Position numbers and translations under genes: made by a program. Below the pieces are notes generated by a model that saw only the letters and a program-made list of their open reading frames with translations, searched no databases and was not told where the DNA came from. From positions 1 to 43,117 of the forward strand of contig JAGWWT010000011.1 in assembly GCA_018970245.1 (NCBI GenBank): 43,117 bases of DNA, given 5' to 3'. Positions within the stretch are counted from its first letter, which is position 1; every line of letters starts with the position of its first letter. The stretch comes from Patescibacteria group bacterium. GTDB taxonomy: Bacteria; Patescibacteriota; Minisyncoccia; Phycocordibacterales; PALSA-1337. This document shows positions 19,444-36,118 of the stretch, in pieces.

Positions 19444-19989
19444 ATGACTAAACAGAACACAACCGGCGAGCGCAATTGGTACGCGATACATACGTACGCG
19501 GGCTATGAGAACGCGGTCGCCCGCAACCTGAAGCAGCGCATCGAGTCCCTCGGCATGGAGGACAAGATCTTCGCCGTGATCGTCCCGACCGAAAAGAAGA
19601 TCAAGGTCAAGGGAGGGAAGCGCGTCGAGGAAGAGGAGAAGATCTACCCGGGCTACGTCCTCGTGGACATGATCGTCACCGACGACAGCTGGTACGTGGT
19701 ACGCAACACGCCTCGAGTGACAGGTTTCGTGGGCGCGGGCGTTTCGCCTGTACCTCTGGACGCCAAGGAAGTCGAGACGCTGTTCGCCAGGATGCAGAAA
19801 GGAGAGACCGAACACGCCATCGATCTTACGGCAGGCGACCTGGTCAAGGTAGCAGACGGCCCGTTCAAGGATTTTGAAGGCAAAGTGGCCGAAGTCGATA
19901 CCCAGCGCGGCAAGATCAAGGTCCTCGTCTCCATGTTCGGCCGCGAAACGCCCGTCGAGCTTGATTTCTTGCAGGTCAAGAAAGTTTAA
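19444..19989 (+). CDS. nusG: Transcription termination/antitermination factor NusG
   Basis: A 181-aa cytosolic protein with the NGN domain (NWYAIHTYAGYENAVARNL through PGYVLVDM and the RNTPRVTGFVG loop) and a C-terminal KOW domain (DLVKVADGPFKDFEGKVAEVD). NusG binds RNA polymerase and couples it to ribosomes or Rho. I chose the ATG at 19444 because it precedes the conserved domain; an upstream ATG at 19396 lies in the repeat-derived spacer. rplK normally follows, but here a RelBE-type module and a DGR intervene. Its stop overlaps the convergent RelE-like gene by 4 bp. Confidence 0.95.
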   Translation: MTKQNTTGERNWYAIHTYAGYENAVARNLKQRIESLGMEDKIFAVIVPTEKKIKVKGGKRVEEEEKIYPGYVLVDMIVTDDSWYVVRNTPRVTGFVGAGVSPVPLDAKEVETLFARMQKGETEHAIDLTAGDLVKVADGPFKDFEGKVAEVDTQRGKIKVLVSMFGRETPVELDFLQVKKV

Positions 19990-20315
19990 ATCCTCGGTCC
20001 AATCAATCGCCGCTCAGCGATTTTGTATACGTCTTTTCTGTTGCCTATGGCGAGAACATATACTCGTTCCCTTTCAGGCTTGAAAATGACGCGGTAATCG
20101 CCGACGCGTAACTTCCAAAAATCTTTCAGAGTTCCACGCAATTTGATCCCGAACACTTCAGGGTGGCTAGTAAGCTTATTATCTATCGAAAGCTTGATTT
20201 TTTTCCGGTCCTCCATCATGATGCCCGAAATATCGCGGGGAAGGACGCTTGGATGATAATCGATCTTCAACGGCGATCTATTTCTTTCCGAGGGCTTTTT
20301 CCCAGAATTCGTCAT
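19986..20315 (-). CDS. RelE/ParE-family toxin
   Basis: A 109-aa protein. The C-terminal 75 residues match the RelE/ParE fold: a helix with DRKKIKLSIDNKL, then GIKLRGTLKDFWKLRVGDYRVIF, where G-x-(W/L)-(K/R)-x-R-x-G-x-(Y/F)-R-(V/I) is the family core, and a final strand with YVLAIGNRKDVYK. Members are ribosome-dependent mRNA interferases or gyrase poisons. The gene overlaps the antitoxin gene upstream by 38 bp if the ATG at 20315 is used; a TTG at 20270 would remove the unusual N-terminus. It is convergent with nusG. Confidence 0.85.
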   Translation of the reverse strand: MTNSGKKPSERNRSPLKIDYHPSVLPRDISGIMMEDRKKIKLSIDNKLTSHPEVFGIKLRGTLKDFWKLRVGDYRVIFKPERERVYVLAIGNRKDVYKIAERRLIGPRI

Positions 20316-20520
20316 GCGGGATCCATTTGATATCCTTCATTTTCATGCGCGCCTCGGCAATCTTGCCAAAATGAAGGTCTTCGTCTATTTCCAAAGCCAT
20401 TCTTAATAGATCGCTTGCCGCAGATGCCACTGGGACTTGATCGCGCTTGGCTCGAAGCCGCAGGGCTTTCCCCATATTCTTGTCTAGCGTCACCGCTATT
20501 CTTTGTTTTGTCGTTGCCAC
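20278..20520 (-). CDS. Antitoxin of the RelE/ParE-like module
   Basis: An 80-aa protein starting (GTG at 20520) with ATTKQRIAVTLDKNMGKAL, a ribbon-helix-helix-like DNA-binding beginning. A helical middle (VASAASDLLRMALEIDEDLHF) follows and then an acidic/aromatic C-terminus that would wrap the toxin. An ATG ten codons upstream is also possible. It should neutralise the RelE-like toxin and repress the pair's promoter. The gene is divergent from the DGR target gene, whose promoter begins 36 bp away, so cross-regulation is conceivable. Confidence 0.8.
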   Translation of the reverse strand: MATTKQRIAVTLDKNMGKALRLRAKRDQVPVASAASDLLRMALEIDEDLHFGKIAEARMKMKDIKWIPHDEFWEKALGKK

Positions 20521-20555
20521 GCCATAAGTGTAGCAAAAGTGTGACACCGCGCAAG

Positions 20556-20584
20556 TTGACAGATGTAATGAAAGGGTGTATAAT
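20556..20584 (+). promoter_or_regulatory. Perfect sigma-70 promoter of the DGR target gene
   Basis: TTGACA (20556-20561) and TATAAT (20579-20584) are separated by exactly 17 bp, a full consensus match. The start would be near 20591, giving a leader of about 94 nt. A Shine-Dalgarno AAGGAG (20673-20678) lies 6 nt before the target ATG. No other gene in the window has such strong signals. Confidence 0.9.
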
Positions 20585-20684
20585 CCCGTTGTAGTACGTT
20601 GAAAGCTGTGGCGAAGAGTCCAGCGAACATAAATCAGAGCATGCCTGTATAAGGCCGGCTCACATCAAAAGAAAGGAGCACGCT

Positions 20685-21413
20685 ATGAGTAGCAAGCTTC
20701 AAGTCATACTGGAACCTGGAATTGCACAGAAACTGCAATTTGCCATCAACCGCACCGATGGCACCTATGAAGACGTCGAGTATCTTTCTACCGGCGATAA
20801 CTTCCGCGCAGTCACATTGCTGCGGACAGGGAAAGCCAAGCTCGTCGAGGTTTCCGAGAATGGGTCCGAAGGCGCAGTCATTCCGACCGCACCGACGCCC
20901 GCCGAATGGACTGTTGATGGGGATGGCAACATCCACTTTACTGTCACCTCGAACGGCTTAACCCCCGAACAGTGGGAACGCCATCTCGAAAGCCGTGGCT
21001 TTCGCCTCTCCGATTACGCACGCAACGTGCTTCGTCGGGCAAGCGAAGCCGCGACCAACGGCGTGGCCTACCACATCGTGGTCCGTCCCGGCAGCAAGAT
21101 CAGCTCGCGTGATCGCATCACGAAGAAGATTCGGGCGCATGCCACGGAAAAAGGCTGGAAGACTCCCCATTGGGAAGTCGCCTGCCTCATCCGCGACACC
21201 TTCACGGACGAGCAGCTCGAGAAGATGGGCCTCTGGTGGATCGTCACCATGCATGGACCGATCACCGATTCCGGTGGCGATCCGAACTTGCTCCACTCGT
21301 TCCGCGGCGGCGGTGGCCGTTGGCTCGTTGCCGACTGCGGCAGGCCTGACGACGAGTGGGGCGACCGTGGCGGTTTCGCGTTCGTTGTCCCGCAAGTTAG
21401 TCCTCAAAACTAG
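20685..21413 (+). CDS. DGR target protein with C-terminal variable region
   Basis: A 242-aa protein whose last ~48 residues are encoded by the variable repeat. Compared with the template, 13 codons differ: residues 197, 204, 206, 208-210, 215, 217-219, 224, 226 and 228. Seven come from AAY (Asn) template codons. The constant frame GRWL...RPDD.W....GGFAFVVPQ resembles the C-type-lectin-like variable domains of known DGR targets. The upstream part (PHWEVACLIRDTFTDEQLEKMGLWWIV in pieces) looks conserved and structural. No signal peptide or membrane helix is visible, so the product may stay in the cytoplasm or use a non-classical route. The strong promoter and ribosome site imply high expression. 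Ligand unknown. Confidence 0.9.
   Translation: MSSKLQVILEPGIAQKLQFAINRTDGTYEDVEYLSTGDNFRAVTLLRTGKAKLVEVSENGSEGAVIPTAPTPAEWTVDGDGNIHFTVTSNGLTPEQWERHLESRGFRLSDYARNVLRRASEAATNGVAYHIVVRPGSKISSRDRITKKIRAHATEKGWKTPHWEVACLIRDTFTDEQLEKMGLWWIVTMHGPITDSGGDPNLLHSFRGGGGRWLVADCGRPDDEWGDRGGFAFVVPQVSPQN
21268..21395 (+). repeat. DGR variable repeat (VR)
   Basis: 128 bp aligning without gaps to the template repeat at an offset of 464. All 18 differences are at template adenines: 13 A-to-G, 3 A-to-T, 2 A-to-C. The 97 non-A template positions are all identical. The last 28 bp, from TGGCGG to CCGCAA, are unchanged and should hold the mutagenic-homing initiation site. A 19th A-to-G change may lie at 21267 if the repeat extends one base further. 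Confidence 0.97.
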
Positions 21414-21426
21414 GTCCCTTAGGACT
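21399..21426 (+). other. Small inverted repeat immediately after the VR
   Basis: AGTCCT (21399-21404) pairs with AGGACT (21421-21426), starting 3 bp after the VR. Other GTCCTTAG-like copies follow up to 21451. DGR targets often carry a hairpin just downstream of the VR that aids homing; this one has a longer loop (16 nt) than the phage example. Confidence 0.4.
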
Positions 21427-21450
21427 CCGGTCCTTAGAAACTTAGTCCTT

Positions 21451-21488
21451 AGCCCTGTTCCGATTCGTCGGAGCGGGGCTAAATTTTT
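21451..21488 (+). terminator. Strong intrinsic terminator with TTCG tetraloop after the DGR target
   Basis: AGCCCTGTTCCGA (21451-21463) pairs with TCGGAGCGGGGCT (21468-21480): 13 consecutive pairs including two G-U, around a TTCG tetraloop, then AAATTTTT. It separates target and template transcripts, and could double as the target-side hairpin used by DGRs. Confidence 0.9.
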
Positions 21489-21514
21489 GCATGAAAATAA
21501 GATATACTTGTGCC

Positions 21515-21893
21515 GGCAGTAGGTGATTATGCGGGCGGTTACGGCTTCCCGCTACCGAACCCAGTATCCATGCATCGAGAGTATCCACGGTCACGGCTTT
21601 GGATAGAGTGGTGCATGCAGCTGTTTAAAAAACGAAGATACTTGGCACGGGGCACTAAGGCATTACGATGCCGGATTCGATTCAGCTCTGAGAGTATTCA
21701 AGGGGCAGTGACTCTGGTGGTGTCTCGTGCAATTCCGATGGCGATCCGAACTTGCTCAACTCGAACCGCAACGACGATGGCCGTTGGCTCAATGCCAACT
21801 ACGACAGGCCTGACGACAAGTGGAACGACAATGGCGGTTTCGCGTTCGTTGTCCCGCAACTCTCTTCATTTCTCTCCCTATTTCTTGGGAGAG
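21515..21893 (+). ncRNA. Predicted DGR template RNA
   Basis: The stretch from a -10-like TATACT (21503-21508) to the terminator hairpin at 21872-21893 would give a ~380-nt RNA carrying the template repeat near its 3' end. Upstream of the template it can form two hairpins: GCGGG/CCCGC (21531-21552), and a longer one with CATGCA/TGCATG (21569-21617) enclosing TATCCA/TGGATA. The -35 is weak, so the 5' end is uncertain. It is the likely substrate for the reverse transcriptase with Avd. Confidence 0.55.
21732..21859 (+). repeat. DGR template repeat (TR)
   Basis: Non-coding copy of the VR with 31 adenines, 18 of which differ in the VR. It carries eight AAY codons in the VR-matching frame, the usual device that yields many amino acids but no stop codons when A is mutated. 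It overlaps no convincing gene; the 68-codon frame through it is the template's own echo of the target. Confidence 0.95.
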
Positions 21894-21898
21894 TTTTG
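21872..21898 (+). terminator. Hairpin terminator 12 bp after the TR
   Basis: CTCTCCC (21872-21878) pairs with GGGAGAG (21887-21893) around 8 nt, then TTTTG. It would end the template RNA. The loop also contains the stop codon of the minus-strand avd-like gene. Confidence 0.75.
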
Positions 21899-22219
21899 TT
21901 TTGTAAGCTGTCCGTTCCATCCACCGAGCATCTTACCGGCTTCATCGAGGATCACTGACAAGGCGATATACTTTTTGTCATCGAAAGATTTCGTTTCCCA
22001 CAAAATCATTAAAAGCACGCGCAGAGTATCGAGCTTCTTTATGGCCAGACGAACATACGGTTGCTTCTCCTCTCGTGAAAGAAAACTCGCAGCAGAGATC
22101 GCTTCAATCACTTCGAAGAACAAAGTATCAACGCGTTGACCGAGAGAATGTCTGTGCGCCTTCGGGATATCCTGATAGAACCTGAACCATTTCAGGTATG
22201 ATTCCTTGATTTTGCTCAA
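21878..22219 (-). CDS. avd: Avd-like four-helix-bundle protein of the DGR
   Basis: A 113-aa, almost wholly helical basic protein. Helix patterns such as YLKWFRFYQDIPKAHRHSLG, VDTLFFEVIEAISAA and AIKKLDTLRVLLMILWE fit the accessory variability determinant family, a pentameric barrel that binds the reverse transcriptase and template RNA. Such proteins resemble the 23S intervening-sequence four-helix family, also seen here at 42722. It is encoded antisense to the template and RT direction, with its 3' end in the template terminator and its 5' end 68 bp from the RT start. In the phage prototype avd lies on the same strand as the RT, so this orientation is notable. Confidence 0.85.
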   Translation of the reverse strand: MSKIKESYLKWFRFYQDIPKAHRHSLGQRVDTLFFEVIEAISAASFLSREEKQPYVRLAIKKLDTLRVLLMILWETKSFDDKKYIALSVILDEAGKMLGGWNGQLTKQNSPKK

Positions 22220-22235
22220 GACTGTTAAGATCTTT

Positions 22236-22277
22236 GGCGGCTGGCGGCTGGCGGCTGGCGGCTGGCGGCTGGCGGCT
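22236..22277 (+). repeat. Six tandem GGCGGCT heptamers between avd and the RT gene
   Basis: Six perfect copies of GGCGGCT (42 bp) followed by a partial GGC. They fill most of the 68-bp spacer between the divergent avd-like gene and the RT. A TTG at 22234 would read through them into the RT frame, so copy number could affect either promoter spacing or an alternative start. Confidence 0.9.
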
Positions 22278-22287
22278 GGCCCTGATC

Positions 22288-23292
22288 ATGTCCAATATCC
22301 AATTCCGACATAACTATAATGATATCATTTCGCTCGATAATCTTCTCGAGGCTTGGCGCGAATTTGTTCGCGGCAAGCGGAATCGCAAGGACGTTCAGGA
22401 ATTTGGACGCAATCTTATGGCGAACATCATTTCGCTTCATCATGATCTCGCCGCCAGAACTTATCGGCATTCCGCCTATCATGCTTTCAAGATCTCTGAT
22501 CCCAAGCCGCGCGAGATTCATAAAGCGAGCGTCAGGGACAGGCTATTGCATCATGCGGTTCACAGGAAGTTGGCGCCATTTTTCGAGAGAACGTTCACAT
22601 CAGATTCCTATTCCTGTCAGATGGCTAAAGGGACACATCGCGCGATTAATCGATTTAGGGAGTTCGCCGGAATCATTTCAAGGAATAATACCCGGACGGC
22701 TTGGGTGCTCAAATGCGACATCAGGAAATTCTTTGCCAATATTGACCAGGAGACGCTTCTTAATATTGTTGATCCGTATATTCTTGATAAGGATATCGTG
22801 TGGTTGTTGTCGGCTATTATAGGTAGCTTCCACTCGAGTAGGAAAGGAATTGGCTTACCACTTGGCAACCTGACATCGCAACTCCTCGTGAATATTTATA
22901 TGAACGAATTTGATCAATTTATCAAGCATCGGCTCAAAGCCAAATATTATATCCGCTACGCCGATGATTTTGTCGTTTTGTTGCCTGATCGAAGTCATCT
23001 CGAACGGATTTTGCCTATGATGAAAGATTATTTAGCGGACAATCTCAAGCTCACGATGCACCCCGACAAGATCTCAATTCAGACAGTTGCGTCCGGAGTA
23101 GACTTTCTCGGCTGGGTCCATTTTCCGGACCATCGCGTCTTGAGGACGACGACAAAAAGACGGATGCTCAAGAGGTTGAAAGCGACGGCTTGCACGCCAG
23201 CCACTCTGCAATCATATTTGGGTCTGATGAGTCATGGCAATTGCCACAAGCTCCGTGAAATTTGCATAAAAAGCGCCGCTATAGTAGAGTAG
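22288..23292 (+). CDS. DGR reverse transcriptase
   Basis: A 334-aa reverse transcriptase made of the RT finger/palm region with no maturase or endonuclease domain. Catalytic aspartates lie in [13 protein letters not shown] (about 141-153) and YADD (224-227). Motif 4 is [10 protein letters not shown] (189-198), ending in SQ as in DGR enzymes rather than the SP of group II intron RTs. FLGW (273-276) marks the thumb boundary. With Avd it copies the template RNA with adenine infidelity into cDNA that replaces the VR. I prefer the ATG at 22288; a TTG at 22234 would add a repeat-encoded Gly/Trp leader. No Shine-Dalgarno site is visible. AT-richer than the flanking ribosomal genes. Confidence 0.95.
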
Positions 23293-24834: not shown

Positions 24835-25461
24835 ATGACCATACGGCGACTCACTTCTAATGGCGGCATCTTCGGCATCGGCTCGAACTTCAAGGACAGA
24901 TTCGTTCCCGACTACGGGCGGCTGAAAAAGCTCGTCGATCATTGCAAGGGCATCGGCCTCACCATCGTGCTCACGCAAGGCACCTATGACATGGTCCATA
25001 TCGGCCACGCTCGTTATTTCGAGGAGGCCAAGAAGCATGGCGATGTCCTGGTCGTGGGCGTCGATAGCGACAAAAAAGTCCGCATGCGCAAGGGCCCAGA
25101 CCGTCCGCTGGTGCCTCAAGCCGAGAGGTTGGAGATGGTCACGCATCTGCGCCCAGTAGATATAGTCACTGTGAAGGAACACGACATGCCGCGCTGGCAT
25201 CTCATACGCACTGTCCGTCCCGACGTGCTCATCGTCACCAAAGAAACGGTGGACAAGTATGGCAAAGCCAAGATGAAGCAGATGGCGCAGTTTTGCGGCA
25301 AGGTCCTCATCCTTGAGCCGATGGCCACGACCTCGACTTCGGCAAAGATCCGCCGCATGCAGCTCAAGCTCGCCAAGAAGTTCGAGAAGGCCATCATACC
25401 CAAGATCGCGGATATGATCAGCGATACGCTGCTCGGGCGTTCGAACGTCGCAAAAAAATAA
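24835..25461 (+). CDS. Cytidylyltransferase-like nucleotidyltransferase
   Basis: A 208-aa protein with the nucleotidyltransferase signature GTYDMVHIGHARYFEEAKKHG at about residues 49-69 (split here by the family HxGH: His-Ile-Gly-His), followed by LVVGVDSDKKVR. This is the TagD/RfaE-C/FAD-synthase-like fold that joins CTP or ATP to a phosphorylated substrate. The C-terminal third, rich in Lys/Arg helices, is not typical. Its stop overlaps the ATG of the deaminase gene by 1 bp, so the two are co-translated and may share a pathway. The substrate cannot be assigned. Confidence 0.85.
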   Translation: MTIRRLTSNGGIFGIGSNFKDRFVPDYGRLKKLVDHCKGIGLTIVLTQGTYDMVHIGHARYFEEAKKHGDVLVVGVDSDKKVRMRKGPDRPLVPQAERLEMVTHLRPVDIVTVKEHDMPRWHLIRTVRPDVLIVTKETVDKYGKAKMKQMAQFCGKVLILEPMATTSTSAKIRRMQLKLAKKFEKAIIPKIADMISDTLLGRSNVAKK

Positions 25462-26390
25462 TGCCTGCCAAAAAGCGCGCGCCGCGTTCGAATTCGGCAC
25501 CGATCATCCTGGCCTACATACCAGTCCTTCATGAAGGCTACCGGCGTTTTTTTGAGAATCACCCGGAGGCGAAAGAACTTTTCATTCTCGGTAAAGACGT
25601 AACGAATCAATACCGGCCGCTCGTCAAGGATATACGTGCTCTTGATCCCGAATTGATCAAGAGCTCGCTTGAAGCCTGGCAGCGGTTCGATTCCATTCGC
25701 GTTGCCGACGAAACGGTTCTGAAATCATTGAGGTCGTCGAGACAAGCGATCATCATGCCTGACGAAGGCGTGATGCGCGAGCTAAAAGAGAAATACTTTC
25801 CGAGTTCGAGAGTGAAATTCGATACGATCTTCCTGCGCTGGGATAAGCACAAAGCTTTTGAGAATAATCCGGTCGAGGCTGATCAAACTGTCTCGACTTC
25901 GAGCAAAGACCAGAAGATGATGGAGCTTTTGAAAGAAGAGGCCGAGAAGAGCTCGGACAATTGGCGGCATATCGGCGCGGCGGTCGTGAAAGGAAACAAG
26001 ATCTTATCCGTGGTCCATAATCATGCGGTGCCCTCGGAGCACCTGCCGTATGACGAGGGCGACCCGCGCTCGGACTTCCACAAAGGCGTGGCTATCGAAT
26101 ATTCCACCGCCTTCCACTGCGAAGCCCAGCTCATCGCCGAAGCGGCCGAAAAAGGCGTTTCGCTCAAAGGCGCCTCCATGTACGTGACCACATTCCCATG
26201 CCCGGCCTGCGCCAAGCTCGTGGCGTATTCCGGCATCAAGGACCTCTATTACGCCGACGGCTATGATGCTCTCGATGGCGTCCGCATCTTGAAGAGCAAG
26301 GATGTGAAGATCATCCATGTGAAGATGAATGCGCGAACAAAAAATGGGGACGCGCATGCGTCCCCTTGGGTGGAGCCGGATACTAAATGA
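25461..26390 (+). CDS. dCMP deaminase-like zinc enzyme with extra N-terminal domain
   Basis: A 309-aa protein. The C-terminal half is a cytidine/deoxycytidylate deaminase domain with the zinc motifs HCE (His219, Glu221) and PCPAC (Cys247, Cys250), and YYADGYDALDG after them. The N-terminal ~125 residues start IILAYIPVLHEGYRRFFE, which resembles a nucleotidyltransferase strand-helix start with a degraded HxGH (HEGY). A dCMP-to-dUMP role would feed ThyA, encoded 1.2 kb away. It overlaps the upstream nucleotidyltransferase gene by 1 bp and the convergent HIT gene by 8 bp. Confidence 0.83.
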   Translation: MPAKKRAPRSNSAPIILAYIPVLHEGYRRFFENHPEAKELFILGKDVTNQYRPLVKDIRALDPELIKSSLEAWQRFDSIRVADETVLKSLRSSRQAIIMPDEGVMRELKEKYFPSSRVKFDTIFLRWDKHKAFENNPVEADQTVSTSSKDQKMMELLKEEAEKSSDNWRHIGAAVVKGNKILSVVHNHAVPSEHLPYDEGDPRSDFHKGVAIEYSTAFHCEAQLIAEAAEKGVSLKGASMYVTTFPCPACAKLVAYSGIKDLYYADGYDALDGVRILKSKDVKIIHVKMNARTKNGDAHASPWVEPDTK

Positions 26391-27566: not shown

Positions 27567-28493
27567 TCAGATTGCCACAGGGATCTTCTTTATGCCAGGG
27601 TGGGGATCGTAGTCCGACAAAGCGAAGTCTTCTCGGCGGAAATCGAAAAGGTCGGTCTTTTTCAGAGCTTCCGGCGTGAGCGATAGGGTAGGCAGCTTGC
27701 GCGGCTCTCTTTCAAGCATGGTCTTCACGGAGTCGACCTGGTCGACATAGATGTGCGCATCTGAAATGCTGTGGATGTATTCATGGGCTTCGGTTCCAGT
27801 CACGTGGGCGATCGCGAGCGCGAGCGCGGCATATTGTATGAGATTCTGCGGCATGCCTACTGGTACGTCGCATGAGCGCTGGATCATATGGAGCGTCAGC
27901 TTGTTCTCGATCACTCGGATATGGACCCATCCATGGCAGGGGCAGACGACGACTTTCTGCTGGCGGTCTTTGACCCTCGAAGTATACTGCGGTATCCACG
28001 GCGAGATGAAATGCGTCCGAAGATGCGGCCGTTCCTTTATCTGTTCGATGATGGTCTTGAATTGGTTGAAGTTCTCGCCTTCAGCGGTCGGGAAGTCATG
28101 AAAAGCCGCGCCATATGATCCAGGTCCCAGATCGCCTTCCTCGAGACCTCGCTTCTCGCATTTTTCCTTCGTGACCCACCAGCGCCACCAGTAGCAGCCG
28201 AATTTCTCCAGTTCTTTTTGGGTGCGCGCTCCATTGATGAAGGCCAAGATCTCGCCGATAGCCTGCTGCCATACCGTGACAGGCAGCGTCTCGGTAGTCT
28301 TGGGGCTCATGTTCCTCTCGGTGATGAGAGGGAATCCGTTCTCGAGCTTGAAATGGAGGGGTTTCGGAGCCATGAGAGTCAAAGCGTCTACTCCTTGCTG
28401 GCTGGGCGTCCTCACGCCGTGTTCGAGTATGTCTCGCAGAAGGTCGCGGTATTGAGTGTCGGGCACGCGATCAGTGAAGGGCTTGATGTTCAT
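27567..28493 (-). CDS. thyA: Thymidylate synthase ThyA
   Basis: A 308-aa cytosolic enzyme making dTMP from dUMP with methylene-tetrahydrofolate. The nucleophilic cysteine is in CPCHGW (Cys186), the phosphate-binding RSCD is at 206-209, N217 follows in PQNLIQYA, and the dUMP-binding D-A-H-I-Y is at 245-249. The sequence departs from the E. coli type in several places (VPVGMPQN for the usual LGxPFN), resembling phage or CPR forms. A TATAAT ends 10 nt before the ATG, so the mRNA probably has almost no leader. It is divergent from glyA across a structured 404-bp region. Confidence 0.92.
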   Translation of the reverse strand: MNIKPFTDRVPDTQYRDLLRDILEHGVRTPSQQGVDALTLMAPKPLHFKLENGFPLITERNMSPKTTETLPVTVWQQAIGEILAFINGARTQKELEKFGCYWWRWWVTKEKCEKRGLEEGDLGPGSYGAAFHDFPTAEGENFNQFKTIIEQIKERPHLRTHFISPWIPQYTSRVKDRQQKVVVCPCHGWVHIRVIENKLTLHMIQRSCDVPVGMPQNLIQYAALALAIAHVTGTEAHEYIHSISDAHIYVDQVDSVKTMLEREPRKLPTLSLTPEALKKTDLFDFRREDFALSDYDPHPGIKKIPVAI

Positions 28494-28559: not shown

Positions 28560-28882
28560 GTGGATAACCTGGGGATTGATTTTAATCCCGGGGAGAGTAA
28601 GCTCTCCTTTAGATTTCCCTTCGGAAGGGAAGCATGAACGGGTACCTTCTTGGTCCCCTGGCGCATGGCGTTGCGATACGTCAAAACCCCATGTTCGCCG
28701 AACATAAAAAAAGCGGGCGCGCGATAAAGGAGGCAGTCACACAAGCATATGCGATCTGCCACCCGGTAACCGTAAGCCCGCCGATTTCTCGCCCAGAATG
28801 AGCATTCGTTGAGGTGTTGTGGTTAGTAAGCCCGTTGCATTTCTCCGCTGTTCGGAGTTCAGTGCAACGGGCTGTTTTTTTT
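28560..28882 (+). other. Structured region between thyA and glyA, candidate RNA or attenuator
   Basis: Within this stretch are three consecutive hairpins: GGGATT/AATCCC, GGAGAG/CTCTCC and TTTCCCTT/AAGGGAA (28572-28631). A palindrome, ATGTTCG-C-CGAACAT, is followed by a run of seven A. A paired region GCGGGC...GCCCGC encloses GGCAG/CTGCC (28713-28781). On the minus strand the last one ends in seven T. GTAAGCCCG occurs twice (28772-28780 and 28827-28834 region), and both copies could pair with the CGGGC of the terminator at 28829-28882, so alternative folds are possible. I could not match it to a known riboswitch or housekeeping RNA. Confidence 0.4.
28829..28882 (+). terminator. Strong terminator directly upstream of glyA
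   Basis: AGCCCGTTGCA (28829-28839) pairs perfectly with TGCAACGGGCT (28863-28873), with an inner CTCCG/CGGAG hairpin, and is followed by G and eight T. It lies 15 bp before the glyA start codon, so it ends an upstream RNA or acts as an attenuator. Confidence 0.9.
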
Positions 28883-28884
28883 GC

Positions 28885-28890
28885 TACGAT
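28885..28890 (+). promoter_or_regulatory. Possible extended -10 of glyA (leaderless)
   Basis: TGCTACGAT (TGn plus TACGAT) lies just after the terminator T tract. It predicts a start at 28897, one base before the ATG. Confidence 0.4.
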
Positions 28891-28897
28891 TCTTGCC

Positions 28898-30097
28898 ATG
28901 AAAGACATCCAGATCAAAAAGCTCATCTCCGCCGAGAAGGCCAGGCAGAAGAAGGCCATCAACCTCATCGCCTCCGAGAATTACGTATCCAAGGACGTCC
29001 TCGAAGCCCTTGGCTCTGAGCTAACCAACAAATACGCTGAGGGCTACCCCGGCAAGCGCTATTACGGCGGCAATGAGATCGTCGACAAGATCGAGCGGCT
29101 CGCCCAGGAGCGCGCCCTCAAGCTGTTCGGACTTTCGCCGGAGGAGTGGCATGTCAACGTCCAGCCATTGTCCGGCTCGCCGGCCAACACCGCCGTCTAC
29201 ACCGGAGTCGTGCCTCCAGGAGGCAAGATCATGGGAATGGCGCTCGACCAGGGCGGCCATCTCACTCACGGCCATAAGGTATCGGCCACAGGCAAATTCT
29301 GGCAGCAGGTCCCTTACGGTCTCGACCAGACGACCGAGACGCTCAATTACGACCAGCTCCGCGAAACGGGCATGAAGGAAAAGCCGGCCGTCATCGTCTC
29401 CGGTTTCACTGCCTATCCGCGCACGATCGATTGGGCGCGCATGAAGGACGTCTGCGAGTCCGCCGAGAGCCTGATGATGGTCGATATGTCCCACTTCGCC
29501 GGATTGGTCGCCGGGGGCGCATATCCTTCGCCGTTCCCGTTCGCCGACATCGTGACCACTACGACCCACAAGACATTGCGCGGCCCGCGCGCGGCGCTCA
29601 TCTTCTCGAGGAAAGACTCCCGTGAATTGTGGAAGAAGATAGACAAAGCCGTTTTTCCCGGCCTGCAGGGCGGTCCCCACGTCAACCAGATCGCCGCTGT
29701 CGCAGTGGCATTGAAAGAAGCGGCGTCGCCCGCCTTCAAGAAATATGCTGCGCAGGTCGTGAAGAACGCCAAAGCCCTCGCCGAAGAGCTCCACGGGAAA
29801 GGCTGGAGGCTCATTTCGGGAGGCACGGATACGCATCTCATCCTAGTCGATACTTGGGACGACGGAAAAAAAGACAGCCGAGGGGCAGGGGGCATCCCAG
29901 GAAAAGAGGCCAGTGAAAGGCTCGAGAAGCGCGGCATCATCGTCAATAAGAACGCCATACCTTTCGACACGCGGCCGCCTGCTGATCCATCGGGCATCAG
30001 GCTCGGGACAGCTGCTGAGACGACGCGCGGCAAGAAAGAGAGCGATTTCCGCAAGATCGGAAAGGAGATAGACAGGATCCTCAGAGCAAAAGTTTAG
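28898..30097 (+). CDS. glyA: Serine hydroxymethyltransferase GlyA
   Basis: A 399-aa PLP-dependent enzyme converting serine and tetrahydrofolate to glycine and methylene-tetrahydrofolate. The PLP lysine is in TTTTHKTLRGPR (Lys225). NLIASENYVS, KRYYGGNEIVD, NVQPLSGSPAN and VDMSHFAGLVAGG are family motifs. The ATG at 28898 begins the conserved protein; the longer frame from 28814 runs through the terminator. A short Gly-rich insert (about 328-335) is the only oddity. Together with ThyA, the DHFR-like enzyme and FolD it closes the folate cycle. Its stop is the first base of a 10-bp stem-loop. Confidence 0.96.
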   Translation: MKDIQIKKLISAEKARQKKAINLIASENYVSKDVLEALGSELTNKYAEGYPGKRYYGGNEIVDKIERLAQERALKLFGLSPEEWHVNVQPLSGSPANTAVYTGVVPPGGKIMGMALDQGGHLTHGHKVSATGKFWQQVPYGLDQTTETLNYDQLRETGMKEKPAVIVSGFTAYPRTIDWARMKDVCESAESLMMVDMSHFAGLVAGGAYPSPFPFADIVTTTTHKTLRGPRAALIFSRKDSRELWKKIDKAVFPGLQGGPHVNQIAAVAVALKEAASPAFKKYAAQVVKNAKALAEELHGKGWRLISGGTDTHLILVDTWDDGKKDSRGAGGIPGKEASERLEKRGIIVNKNAIPFDTRPPADPSGIRLGTAAETTRGKKESDFRKIGKEIDRILRAKV

Positions 30098-32458: not shown

Positions 32459-32554
32459 ATGACCATAGTAGCACGAATGGCGTTTGGCGGCAGGACGCAT
32501 GGCCGCGGCGCGCTGATGATTGAAATGGCATCGAAATTGCCGTAAGCTGTGTGC

Positions 32555-35500
32555 ATGCCGAAAAGCCCTAACGCCGAAAGAGAAGAGAAGACGCTGGCCT
32601 ACTGGAGAGAGAAGAAGATATTCGAAAAGACCTTGGAAAAGACGGCCAAGGGCAAGGAATTCGTCTTCTACGAAGGGCCGCCGACCGCGAACGGCCGGCC
32701 TGGCATCCATCACCTGGAGGCCCGCGCATTCAAGGACGCCATCCCGCGATACAAGACCATGCGCGGATTTTACGTGCGCCGCAAGGGCGGTTGGGACACG
32801 CACGGCTTGCCGGTGGAGCTCGCTGTCGAGAAGGAGCTCGGCCTCAAGTCCAAAAAAGAGATCGAGCAGTACGGCATCGCCGCGTTCAATGAGAAATGCA
32901 AGGAGAGCGTCTGGCAGTTCGTCCATGAATGGGAAGACTTCACCGACCGCATGGGCTATTGGGTCGATCTCAAGCATCCTTATATAACGTACAAGCCTGA
33001 ATACATCGAGTCAGTCTGGAACATCGTGAAGACGGTCGACCATGAGCGCCTCCTATATAAAGACTACAAAGTCGTGCCGTGGTGCCCGCGCTGCGGGACG
33101 GCTCTGTCCTCGCATGAATTGGCGCAGGGCTACGAAGACGTAAAGGACCTTTCCGTCTACGTGAAGTTCAAGGTCCTTGGCGGGGCGCCGGCGATCGCCA
33201 ACGTGGCAGGCGGCCAAGGCAGCGTCTACTTCCTGGCCTGGACGACCACGCCTTGGACTCTGCCTGGCAACGTGGCGCTGGCTATCGGCGAGAAGATGGA
33301 TTATGTCGCGGGCCGCTTCGAAGGATCTGGGGATGTCCTCATCATGGCCAAGGAACGGTCGGAAGCCGTAGCCAAAGCATCCTCAAAGGACGGCGCGCCA
33401 GCGGGCTTCCAGATACTATCCGAATTCAAAGGCAAGGACCTGATCGGCGCCTCGTACGAGCCGCTGTATCCATTCATGGGCAGCATCGCCGGCCCCGAAA
33501 AGGACAAGCTTGCCGATGCTTTCAAAGTCTACGCTGCCGATTTCGTCACGACGGCTGACGGTACGGGCATAGTCCATACGGCGGTCATGTATGGCCAGGA
33601 CGATTTCGAGTTGGGCACGAAGGTCGGCCTTCCTAAGCATCATCTGGTCGGCGAGGACGGCACATTCAAGCCGGAAGCCGGCTTCTTGGCCGGCAAGTTC
33701 GTCAAGGACGAAGCCACCGACGTCGAGATCATCAAGGACCTGGCGGGGCGCGGCTTGCTCTTCGCCAAGGAGAAGTACCAGCATTCATACCCGTTCTGCT
33801 GGCGCTGCCACACGCCTCTCATCTATTACGCGCGCGATTCCTGGTACATAAAGATGTCCGCCCTCCGCCAGAAGCTGATCAAGGAGAATCAGCCGATACA
33901 TTGGGAGCCCGAGCATATAAAAGACGGCAGATTCGGGGAATGGCTGCGCGAAGTGAAGGACTGGGCTGTCTCGCGCGAGCGATATTGGGGGACGCCGCTG
34001 CCGATCTGGGTCTGCGAGCATTCGAACGGCGGATGCGGCGAGCGCCGCGTGGCCGGCTCGATAGCCGAGATATCGAAGAAGCCGCGCAATACCTACTGGG
34101 CCATGCGGCACGGCCAAGCCGACAACAACACCAGGAACATCTTGGATTCTGAAGCGCGCGACAAGGCGATGCCGTCCAGGCTCACGGCCATCGGCAGGGA
34201 TCAGGCGATCTCGGCGGCTTATGACCTGAAGAAGATCAAGCCCGATCTCGTGTACGTCTCTCCTTTGGAGAGGACGAAAGAGACCGCTGCCATCATCAAA
34301 GAGACGCTCGGCCTCGAAGACAGCCAGGTGATATCCGACGACCGCATAAGGGAGATGGATATGGGCGAGTGGAACGGCAAGGACATAAGGTTCTTCTACG
34401 AGCAGTGCCGTTTCGAGGAGCGGTTCACCAAGGGTCCCAAGGGCGGCGAGACTTATGCGGACATAAAGAAGCGCATGGGCGAGTTCCTCTATGATCTGGA
34501 ATCCAAGCACGAGGGCAAGAAGGTGCTCATCATCTCGCATGAGACGCCGATATTCCTCCTTATGGCGGCGGCGCAGGGGCTGGACCGCGCGGAGTCTCTC
34601 GCGATGCGCGGCGGCAAGGATTATATAGACAACGCAGAGGTCAGGCAGGTGCCGTTCTCGATATTGCCGCACAACCCTGAGTTCGAGCTCGAACTTCACA
34701 GGCCATACATAGACGAGGTCCGGCTTCCGTGCGCATGCGGCAAGGACATGAAGCGCGTCCGGGAAGTCATGGATGTCTGGTTCGATTCCGGAGCGATGCC
34801 GTTCGCGGAAGACCATTGGCCGTTTAAGCAGAGATCAGAGATTAGAGATCAGAGATTAGAGATTAGAGATGAGAGATCAGAGATTAGAGAGCAGAGATCA
34901 GAGAAAAGAGAGCAGAAGCTGAGGTATCCGGCGGATTTCATCTCTGAGGCCATCGATCAGACTCGCGGGTGGTTCTACACGCTACATGCTATCGGCGTCC
35001 TCATGGGCAAAGGCAAAGCTTACAAGAACGTCGTCTGCCTGGGCCACATCCTCGACGCCAAGGGCCAGAAGATGTCCAAGCACATAGGCAATGTCCTGAA
35101 CCCATTCGAGATGATGGACAAATACGGCGCCGATGCCTTGCGCTTCTGGATGTATTCGGTCAACCAGCCTGGAGAATCCAAGGATTTCGACGAGAAGACG
35201 GTCGACGAGATCGTCAAGAAAGTCTTCAACTTGGCCGCGAATGTGCTGTCTTTCTATAAGCTGTACGAGAGGGCAGAGATTAGAGATGAGAGATTAGATA
35301 TTAGAGATGAGAGATTAGAGATTAGAGATGAGAGATTAGAGAATGTGCTGGATAGGTGGATAATGGCGCGGCTGGACGAGCTGGTAGGCACGGTCACGGA
35401 TGGGCTGGATTCTTACATCTTCCTAGAGCCGACGCGCGCCATCCGGGAATTCGTGGCTGACCTTTCGCAATGGTACCTCCGCCGCTCCAGGGACAGGTTC

Positions 35501-36118
35501 AAGGGCGATGATCTCGCCGACAAGGAAGCGGCTTTAGCGACCACCAAGGAGGTCTTGCTCACCCTCGCCAAAGTCATGGCGCCGTTCGCTCCGTTTTTCG
35601 CAGAGCATCTTTACAAAGAGGCCGGCGGCCCGCTCGAGAGCGTGCATCTAGAAAAATGGCCAGCCGCCAAGAAGGCGGACAAGGAGCTGATAAAAGCCAT
35701 GGGTCAAGCGCGCAGCATCGCATCGAAGGCCCTTGAAGCTAGGATGGCCGCGAAGATCAATGTCAGGCAACCGCTGTCGTCATTGAAGATCGGCCTGAAG
35801 CTGTCCGACGAGCTCGCTGCCGTACTTAGGGAAGAGATCAACGTCAAGTCTGTCGCTGTCGATGCCAAGCTAGAAGGCGAGATCGCTCTAGATACGGATA
35901 TCACGCCGGCGCTGAAAGAAGAGGGCGATTTCCGCGAATTAGTGCGCAGGATCCAGGACGCTCGCAAAGAGAAAGGGATGACCATTCTTGATGTAGCGAG
36001 ATTGACGCTGGCTTCAGGCGAGCTCCCGTTGGCGCAGAAATATGAGCAGCAGCTCAAAAAAGCCACGAATATAGGCGAGATCAAGCAAGGGGAAGCTTTC
36101 TCTGTAGACAAGGCCTAG
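32555..36118 (+). CDS. ileS: Isoleucyl-tRNA synthetase with embedded histidine-phosphatase domain
   Basis: A 1187-aa protein, longer than the ~900-1050 aa usual for IleRS. The synthetase parts are complete. The HIGH-type motif is GIHH (50-53, after PPTANGRP), and CPRCG marks a zinc ribbon. The CP1 editing domain (TTTPWTLPGN and HTAVMYGQDDFELG), WVSRERYWGTPLPIW-like core, DVWFDSGAMPF and KMSKH (839-843) follow. Residues ~511-708 are an inserted phosphoglycerate-mutase/histidine-phosphatase domain with RHG (518-520), SPLERTKET, EMDMGEW (600-606) and SHET (His662). Two heptad insertions (about 759-787 and 907-930) derive from AGAGATT DNA repeats. I start at the ATG at 32555; a GTG lies two codons upstream. 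recO follows by 6 bp. Confidence 0.96.
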   Translation: MPKSPNAEREEKTLAYWREKKIFEKTLEKTAKGKEFVFYEGPPTANGRPGIHHLEARAFKDAIPRYKTMRGFYVRRKGGWDTHGLPVELAVEKELGLKSKKEIEQYGIAAFNEKCKESVWQFVHEWEDFTDRMGYWVDLKHPYITYKPEYIESVWNIVKTVDHERLLYKDYKVVPWCPRCGTALSSHELAQGYEDVKDLSVYVKFKVLGGAPAIANVAGGQGSVYFLAWTTTPWTLPGNVALAIGEKMDYVAGRFEGSGDVLIMAKERSEAVAKASSKDGAPAGFQILSEFKGKDLIGASYEPLYPFMGSIAGPEKDKLADAFKVYAADFVTTADGTGIVHTAVMYGQDDFELGTKVGLPKHHLVGEDGTFKPEAGFLAGKFVKDEATDVEIIKDLAGRGLLFAKEKYQHSYPFCWRCHTPLIYYARDSWYIKMSALRQKLIKENQPIHWEPEHIKDGRFGEWLREVKDWAVSRERYWGTPLPIWVCEHSNGGCGERRVAGSIAEISKKPRNTYWAMRHGQADNNTRNILDSEARDKAMPSRLTAIGRDQAISAAYDLKKIKPDLVYVSPLERTKETAAIIKETLGLEDSQVISDDRIREMDMGEWNGKDIRFFYEQCRFEERFTKGPKGGETYADIKKRMGEFLYDLESKHEGKKVLIISHETPIFLLMAAAQGLDRAESLAMRGGKDYIDNAEVRQVPFSILPHNPEFELELHRPYIDEVRLPCACGKDMKRVREVMDVWFDSGAMPFAEDHWPFKQRSEIRDQRLEIRDERSEIREQRSEKREQKLRYPADFISEAIDQTRGWFYTLHAIGVLMGKGKAYKNVVCLGHILDAKGQKMSKHIGNVLNPFEMMDKYGADALRFWMYSVNQPGESKDFDEKTVDEIVKKVFNLAANVLSFYKLYERAEIRDERLDIRDERLEIRDERLENVLDRWIMARLDELVGTVTDGLDSYIFLEPTRAIREFVADLSQWYLRRSRDRFKGDDLADKEAALATTKEVLLTLAKVMAPFAPFFAEHLYKEAGGPLESVHLEKWPAAKKADKELIKAMGQARSIASKALEARMAAKINVRQPLSSLKIGLKLSDELAAVLREEINVKSVAVDAKLEGEIALDTDITPALKEEGDFRELVRRIQDARKEKGMTILDVARLTLASGELPLAQKYEQQLKKATNIGEIKQGEAFSVDKA
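34830..34913 (+). repeat. Twelve AGAGAT-type heptamers inside ileS (array 1)
   Basis: Twelve 7-bp units, mostly AGAGATT or AGAGATC, coding a charged 7-residue repeat (RSEIRDQ-like). A unit ending in T creates TAG with the next unit. The four units whose last base opens an in-frame codon (34850, 34871, 34892, 34913) end in C or G. Confidence 0.95.
35275..35344 (+). repeat. Ten AGAGAT-type heptamers inside ileS (array 2)
   Basis: The same heptamer family 360 bp downstream. Units whose last base opens an in-frame codon (35288, 35309, 35330) end in G, while the other six of the first nine end in T. It encodes RDERLEI-type heptads near the anticodon-binding domain. Confidence 0.95.

What the first reader, a model, noticed from the sequence alone, without database searches (positions are those of the whole stretch)
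20685..23292. A complete diversity-generating retroelement with exclusively adenine-directed variation
Seen: the last 128 bp of the target gene (21268-21395) align gap-free with 21732-21859 and differ at 18 sites, all of them adenines in the downstream copy; the 97 non-A template sites are identical. A reverse transcriptase with YADD and GNLTSQ and an Avd-like protein are next to it. Known: this is the defining signature of DGRs. Inference: the element has been active recently, because no neutral mutations have accumulated outside adenines. The target protein outside the VR is not one I can name.
Basis: partly seen in the sequence, partly recalled or inferred. Interest (0 to 1): 0.92.

Follow-up and report, generated by a model that had tools for sequence, protein, structure and literature searches.

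The report
Patescibacterial DGR with structured template RNA
This is a genuine, recently active gene-diversifying element in a tiny uncultured bacterium; comparison with about 60 relatives shows that its group wires the template RNA, the helper gene and the target signal differently from the one well-studied example, which makes new mechanisms testable.

Summary
VR 21268-21395 and TR 21732-21859 differ at 18 of 128 sites, all TR adenines. The locus is a diversity-generating retroelement (DGR) of a Patescibacterium: target gene, TR, Avd and DGR-type reverse transcriptase, inserted with a toxin-antitoxin pair between nusG and rplK. That site is empty in 29/29 same-genus genomes.

Beyond the finding, 61 related loci share an architecture unlike phage BPP-1: (1) Avd antisense between TR and RT; (2) a covarying structured RNA leader directly 5' of TR, whose P1 helix ends at the TR start; (3) a long-range helix joining leader and TR 3' end; (4) a terminator-like hairpin after TR; (5) CTTNG pentamers every 7-8 bp behind VR. 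Rfam holds only a distant relative (RT-7, far below cut-off). Priming from the leader is inference.

The target's C-terminal part is C-type-lectin-like; its N-terminus is an exchangeable module. Target+leader+TR and avd+RT have different histories. DGR: known kind; this architecture: apparently an undescribed variant.

The parts
20556..20584 (+). target-gene promoter (TTGACA-17-TATAAT, 12/12)
   Evidence: consensus match; about 1 promoter-like site expected by chance in the region
20599..20684 (+). target 5' UTR conserved in several DGR targets of the genus
   Evidence: seven other loci, 74-86% identity over 35-104 nt
20685..21413 (+). target gene, 242 aa: exchangeable N-terminal module (about aa 1-72) plus C-type-lectin-like C-terminal part (aa 74-239)
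21268..21395 (+). variable repeat (VR)
21410..21452 (+). array of six CTTNG-like pentamers spaced 8,7,8,8,7 bp directly behind VR (candidate recipient-recognition element)
   Evidence: 57/61 loci have >=3 copies versus 7.8 in dinucleotide shuffles
21409..21446 (.). potential DNA hairpin/cruciform with 4-nt loop behind VR (AGGAC-TCCG-GTCCT core)
   Evidence: z -3.96, includes the terminator hairpin; 27/61 loci versus 4.3 shuffled
21449..21482 (+). terminator-like hairpin of the target gene
21503..21508 (+). inferred -10 box (TATACT) of the TR noncoding RNA
   Evidence: TATAAT-like hexamer conserved in the alignment; a strict pattern with GGNAGTAGG fits 24/61 loci
21515..21629 (+). leader domain I: two covarying hairpins; distantly like the 5' domain of Rfam RT-7
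21630..21644 (+). P0 5' strand (AAACGAAGATACTTG)
21645..21730 (+). leader domain II: P1 (21645-21656 with 21719-21730), P2, P3; the 3' arm of P1 ends 1 nt before TR
21732..21859 (+). template repeat (TR)
21857..21871 (+). P0 3' strand: last 3 nt of TR plus 12 nt (CAACTCTCTTCATTT), pairs with 21630-21644
21872..21902 (+). terminator-like hairpin and T-rich tail of the TR RNA, overlapping the 3' end of antisense avd
   Evidence: (58/61 loci versus 8.6 shuffled)
21878..22219 (-). Avd accessory protein, 113 aa, opposite strand
22235..22280 (.). 7-bp tandem repeat (TGGCGGC x 6.6) between avd and RT starts
22288..23292 (+). DGR reverse transcriptase, 334 aa from ATG (frame open from 22234)

Best explanation
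A complete chromosomal DGR of the Patescibacteria-type lineage. Shown: adenine-specific TR>VR rewriting since species divergence; conserved covarying RNA leader upstream of TR; long-range pairing of leader with the TR 3' end; antisense Avd; terminator-like hairpin behind TR; CTTNG array behind VR. Inferred mechanism: a separate roughly 380-nt noncoding RNA starts near 21515 and ends near 21900. Its leader recruits RT-Avd. P0 clamps the TR 3' end next to P1, so TR is a loop between two helices. Reverse transcription starts near the P0/TR junction, copies TR with errors at adenines and stops at P1, which fixes the other end of the cDNA. The cDNA replaces VR, and the array (and hairpin) behind VR mark the recipient so that TR itself is spared. 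The result is diversification of about 20 codons of a lectin-like domain, up to 1e17 proteins, probably a binding protein. The confidence given is for 'complete DGR, active since species divergence, with this RNA architecture'; the leader-priming step alone I put at about 0.5.
For: VR/TR pattern; G032 comparison; enzymes. Same order VR-TR-RT in 61 loci; over the 62 pairs scored (one of them a second, distant DGR) 1047/1935 TR adenines changed versus 26/5749 other sites. Avd antisense in all 73 loci with a match. Leader: 23 pairs, 94.9% of cells paired, 327 double-sided changes versus 99 shuffled, and sliding partners by 1-3 columns destroys it. P0: duplex score 17.6 versus 14.3 +/- 0.37 permuted, 678 pairs versus 614 +/- 6.6, held-out loci 18.2 versus 16.8 +/- 0.36; MFE fold of the window RNA recovers P0-P3. 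Leader model: of the 45 top hits placed in loci, all but two (L190, L195) lie by target, avd or RT matches; avd or RT itself is missing also in L154, where the contig ends. Leader and antisense Avd go together with RTs of >=46% identity, 6/6 viral-labelled contigs, while the leader is absent at <=38% and in BPP-1 and BalMu-1. TR adenines in the last 10 nt are changed at 0.16-0.20 versus about 0.58 elsewhere, as expected if that end is priming or homology sequence.
Against: No transcript, cDNA or priming data. The leader model was built on loci chosen by RT similarity, and the held-out loci are consensus-like. The permutations keep column make-up but not relatedness, so their z-values overstate significance. 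The energy of the single-sequence fold is not exceptional (z -1.3); the case rests on covariation. Low variation at the TR 3' end is partly built in, because the repeat is defined to end in identity. The -10 box is weak. The window is a metagenome-assembled contig.
Confidence: 0.85

Rival explanations
1. An ordinary DGR that works as in Bordetella phage BPP-1, with the RNA 3' of TR (read through the avd antisense region) recruiting RT-Avd and priming, and the leader only regulating transcription or RNA stability.
For: RT is closest to the BPP-1-type RT structures 8ub7-8ube (that these are the BPP-1 bRT-Avd-RNA entries is from memory); transcripts could read through weak terminators.
Against: 58/61 loci have a terminator-like hairpin within 70 nt of the TR end; the region further 3' is antisense avd coding sequence; the covarying noncoding structure is 5' and is tied to the TR 3' end.
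Confidence: 0.2
2. The DGR is a dead or slow relic; VR resemblance to TR is retained by gene conversion or youth rather than by reverse transcription.
For: Roux et al. 2021 report lower-than-average activity for DGR clades 2 and 3 (PMC8144416); no population data here.
Against: A-specific divergence cannot come from plain gene conversion; VR tracks TR changes at non-A sites in two lineages; RT, Avd and target frames are intact.
Confidence: 0.07
3. The mixed ancestry (target+leader+TR from the genus, avd+RT from another DGR lineage) is an assembly chimera at the TR.
For: The identity drop lies at 21872, just behind a repeat, where short-read assemblies can misjoin; the bin has 4.4% contamination and 1.42 Mb.
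Against: Both flanks (nusG 97%, rplK 91%) are closest to the same genome G017, and RT lies 24 bp before rplK, so the enzymes belong to this locus; module exchange fits the N-terminal swaps and the enzyme-less cassettes.
Confidence: 0.15

Closest known systems
Bordetella phage BPP-1 DGR (mtd/avd/TR/brt)
   Same: A-specific TR>VR transfer, VR at the target C-terminus, Avd, related RT, lectin-like variable protein, possible hairpin behind VR
   Different: BPP-1: avd on the same strand between VR and TR, and a 144-nt spacer 3' of TR that folds, recruits bRT-Avd and primes (PMC12875486); its VR is followed by a GGGGCC-GAAA-GGCCCC hairpin and no CTTNG array. Here the structured RNA is 5' of TR, avd is antisense 3' of TR, and an array follows VR.
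Patescibacteria (CPR) DGRs, 'DGR clade 2' of Roux et al. 2021
   Same: host phylum, chromosomal, target with unrecognised N-terminus
   Different: nothing excludes membership; the RNA leader, P0, array and antisense Avd are not mentioned in the text read, but supplements and the 2017 and 2018 CPR/DGR surveys were not available
Rfam RT-7 RNA (RF03028)
   Same: its 5' hairpin resembles leader domain I; sub-threshold matches lie beside R1 hits or DGR genes in G100, G165 and G115
   Different: 20.7 bits in the window versus a cut-off of 116.8; no match in 20 related loci
same-genus DGR of G032 (between tpiA and pgk)
   Same: target, leader and TR 89% identical overall (TR 126/128)
   Different: Avd and RT only about 60% identical in DNA; different chromosomal site

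Membership tests
Diversity-generating retroelement | TR/VR pair with changes at template adenines | tested here: met
Diversity-generating retroelement | DGR-type reverse transcriptase next to TR | tested here: met
   motif GNLTSQ seen in the sequence
Diversity-generating retroelement | Avd accessory protein | tested here: met
   (below the NCBIfam cut-off, above Pfam's)
Diversity-generating retroelement | VR at the C-terminus of a C-type-lectin-fold target | tested here: inconclusive
   VR is at the C-terminus. Fold: Z about 5, nearly all top rows C-type lectin or FGE folds, but Z under 8 and Foldseek E above 0.2; likely, not proved
Diversity-generating retroelement | mutagenic homing demonstrated | tested here: inconclusive
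   evolutionary evidence only; no reads or experiment
BPP-1-type RNA architecture | folded noncoding spacer 3' of TR, avd co-directional | tested here: not met
DGR clade 2 (Patescibacteria) | RT groups with clade 2 in the RT phylogeny | not tested
   no tree against the published set; nearly all of the 80 closest RTs come from Patescibacteria-type or unclassified MAGs, one MAG being labelled Spirochaetia
Rfam RT-7 RNA | covariance-model score above the gathering cut-off | tested here: not met

The most novel reading that the evidence does not exclude
A large DGR lineage primes and bounds its mutagenic cDNA from a 5' leader RNA (P0 clamp at the TR 3' end, P1 stop at the TR 5' end) rather than from a 3' spacer, marks its recipient by a 7-8-bp-phased CTTNG array, and trades target+leader+TR modules between enzyme sets, with some enzyme-less cassettes served in trans.
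Probability: 0.45. Interest if true: 0.78.

Novelty: new variant of a known kind. Interest (0 to 1): 0.58.

Why it matters
DGR mechanism is known in detail from one phage. Patescibacteria carry many DGRs and cannot easily be grown. A defined RNA with testable helices, a minimal promoter-to-terminator template gene and a candidate recipient signal would let the system be rebuilt in a laboratory host and show whether the BPP-1 mechanism is general. The apparent module exchange suggests that the RNA-enzyme interface is conserved enough to mix parts, which would be useful for targeted protein diversification.

Tried and rejected
Pfam, NCBIfam, PHROGs and PDB sequence searches with the target gave nothing significant; Foldseek alone gave no match below E 0.2. 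Rfam at gathering threshold: none. A second VR or target in the own genome: none; the weak hit on contig C58 was not followed. MAFFT alignment of the post-TR region gave no consensus structure because hairpin lengths vary, so it was tested per sequence. The Nature 2025 DGR RNA structure paper, Paul 2017, Wu 2018 and Weinberg 2017 are not held. A nusG-rplK hot spot was considered and rejected: 29/29 same-genus sites are empty. A conserved GRNA loop as in phage DGR hairpins was not found.

Full report
Observation. The VR (21268-21395) and TR (21732-21859) align over 128 bp with 18 differences, all at TR adenines; the 97 other sites are identical (P = 5e-14 for that placement). The target ORF (20685-21413), the RT (22288-23292) and Avd (22219-21878, minus strand) are intact. 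20 codons contain adenines, with only one able to become a stop, giving about 1e17 possible proteins.

Setting. The window lies in a 1.42-Mb metagenome-assembled genome (98% complete, 4.4% contamination). That it is a Patescibacterium is inferred from the close RT relatives, nearly all Parcubacteria-type MAGs, and from the small genomes of its genus. The DGR and a minus-strand pair (ParE-like toxin, Pfam 1.4e-6, and a small partner ORF without a family) sit between nusG and rplK. In 29 of 29 other genomes of the genus with the site readable, nusG and rplK are adjacent, so this is an insertion specific to this lineage. Both flanks are closest to the same relative, G017.

Activity. Same-genus genome G032 has a DGR between tpiA and pgk (named by eye from the start of the proteins) whose target, leader and TR are 89% identical to 20605-21872 (TR 126/128). 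The two TR differences are at non-A positions 9 and 124, and each genome's VR agrees with its own TR at both. The VRs differ at 19 of 31 TR-A sites and 2 of 97 others. Thus VR was rewritten from TR after the split. At the boundary 21872 identity falls to about 60% for avd and RT, although in other relatives the RT is better conserved than the target. Target+leader+TR and avd+RT therefore seem to have different histories; an assembly chimera is the main alternative.

Architecture of the lineage. In 61 loci the order VR-TR-RT and the spacings (medians about 345 nt VR-TR, 405 nt TR-RT) are nearly constant, and Avd is always antisense between TR and RT. The noncoding VR-TR interval contains, in order: a CTTNG array and hairpin behind VR, a terminator, a weak -10 box, leader domain I with two covarying hairpins, and leader domain II with helices P1-P3, whose P1 3' arm ends 1 nt before TR. 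The segment just 5' of P1 pairs with the TR 3' end and the 12 nt behind it (P0), with covariation among loci and in held-out loci. A terminator-like hairpin follows immediately. A covariance model of the leader finds hits in 87/286 genomes of the class and 66/380 of a phylum-wide draw; of the 45 top hits placed in loci nearly all lie by DGR genes. It hits 6/6 viral-labelled DGR contigs with RT identity >=46%, and none of those at <=38% nor BPP-1 or BalMu-1.

Comparison. In BPP-1, avd precedes TR on the same strand and a 144-nt spacer lies between TR and brt, which folds, recruits the enzymes and primes (PMC12875486). Here the folded RNA is on the 5' side of TR and is tied to its 3' end by P0. 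The suggestion that priming occurs at this junction and that P1 stops the RT is inference; low variation of the last TR adenines fits but is partly built into the repeat definition. Rfam RT-7 shares a hairpin with domain I at sub-threshold score, near DGR genes, so related RNAs have been catalogued, though not this family above cut-off. Roux et al. 2021 (PMC8144416) define a Patescibacteria clade (clade 2), note that its targets lack recognisable domains, and do not mention these RNA features in the passages read; key papers could not be read, so novelty is provisional.

Target. AlphaFold (mean pLDDT 76.8) gives a confident core for about aa 80-190 and a weaker VR region; the second-look structural list is made almost wholly of C-type lectin and formylglycine-generating-enzyme folds at Z about 5, moderate evidence for the usual DGR fold. 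The N-terminal 70 aa recur on targets of the genus with an unrelated C-terminus (L025, G028), so domains are shuffled.

Noticed in passing
L213 (G452:C4 near 129.2 kb) and L214 (G643:C7 near 106.4 kb): Leader-RNA hits without avd or RT nearby; in G452 the cassette has a clean TR/VR pair (26 A changes, 0 others), and an RT-bearing DGR lies about 44 kb away on the same contig: possible enzyme-less DGR cassettes served in trans.
   Followed up: partly
20599-20684: 5' UTR of the target is conserved among several DGR targets of the genus, even some with different target C-termini; role unknown.
   Followed up: partly
21410-21452: CTTNG pentamers with alternating 7/8-bp spacing behind VR, in 57/61 loci and rare behind TR; no known counterpart found.
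   Followed up: partly
32549-36118: Isoleucyl-tRNA synthetase (TIGR00392) with a histidine-phosphatase domain (PF00300, aa 517-686) inserted in its middle, and 7-bp AGAGAT-type tandem repeats inside the gene.
   Followed up: no
22235-22280: TGGCGGC tandem repeat (6.6 copies) between the divergent avd and RT starts.
   Followed up: no
19986-20547: ParE-like toxin and partner ORF on the minus strand, the toxin ORF overlapping the last bases of nusG; may have arrived with the DGR.
   Followed up: no
25461-26390, 27567-28493, 28814-30097: dCMP/cytidine deaminase-like, thymidylate synthase and SHMT genes close together downstream of rplK.
   Followed up: no
L198 (G165), RT-7 match at 1501-1564: Rfam RT-7-like hairpin beside a DGR-like RT of 49% identity: RT-7 may be the template-RNA leader of another DGR group.
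   Followed up: partly
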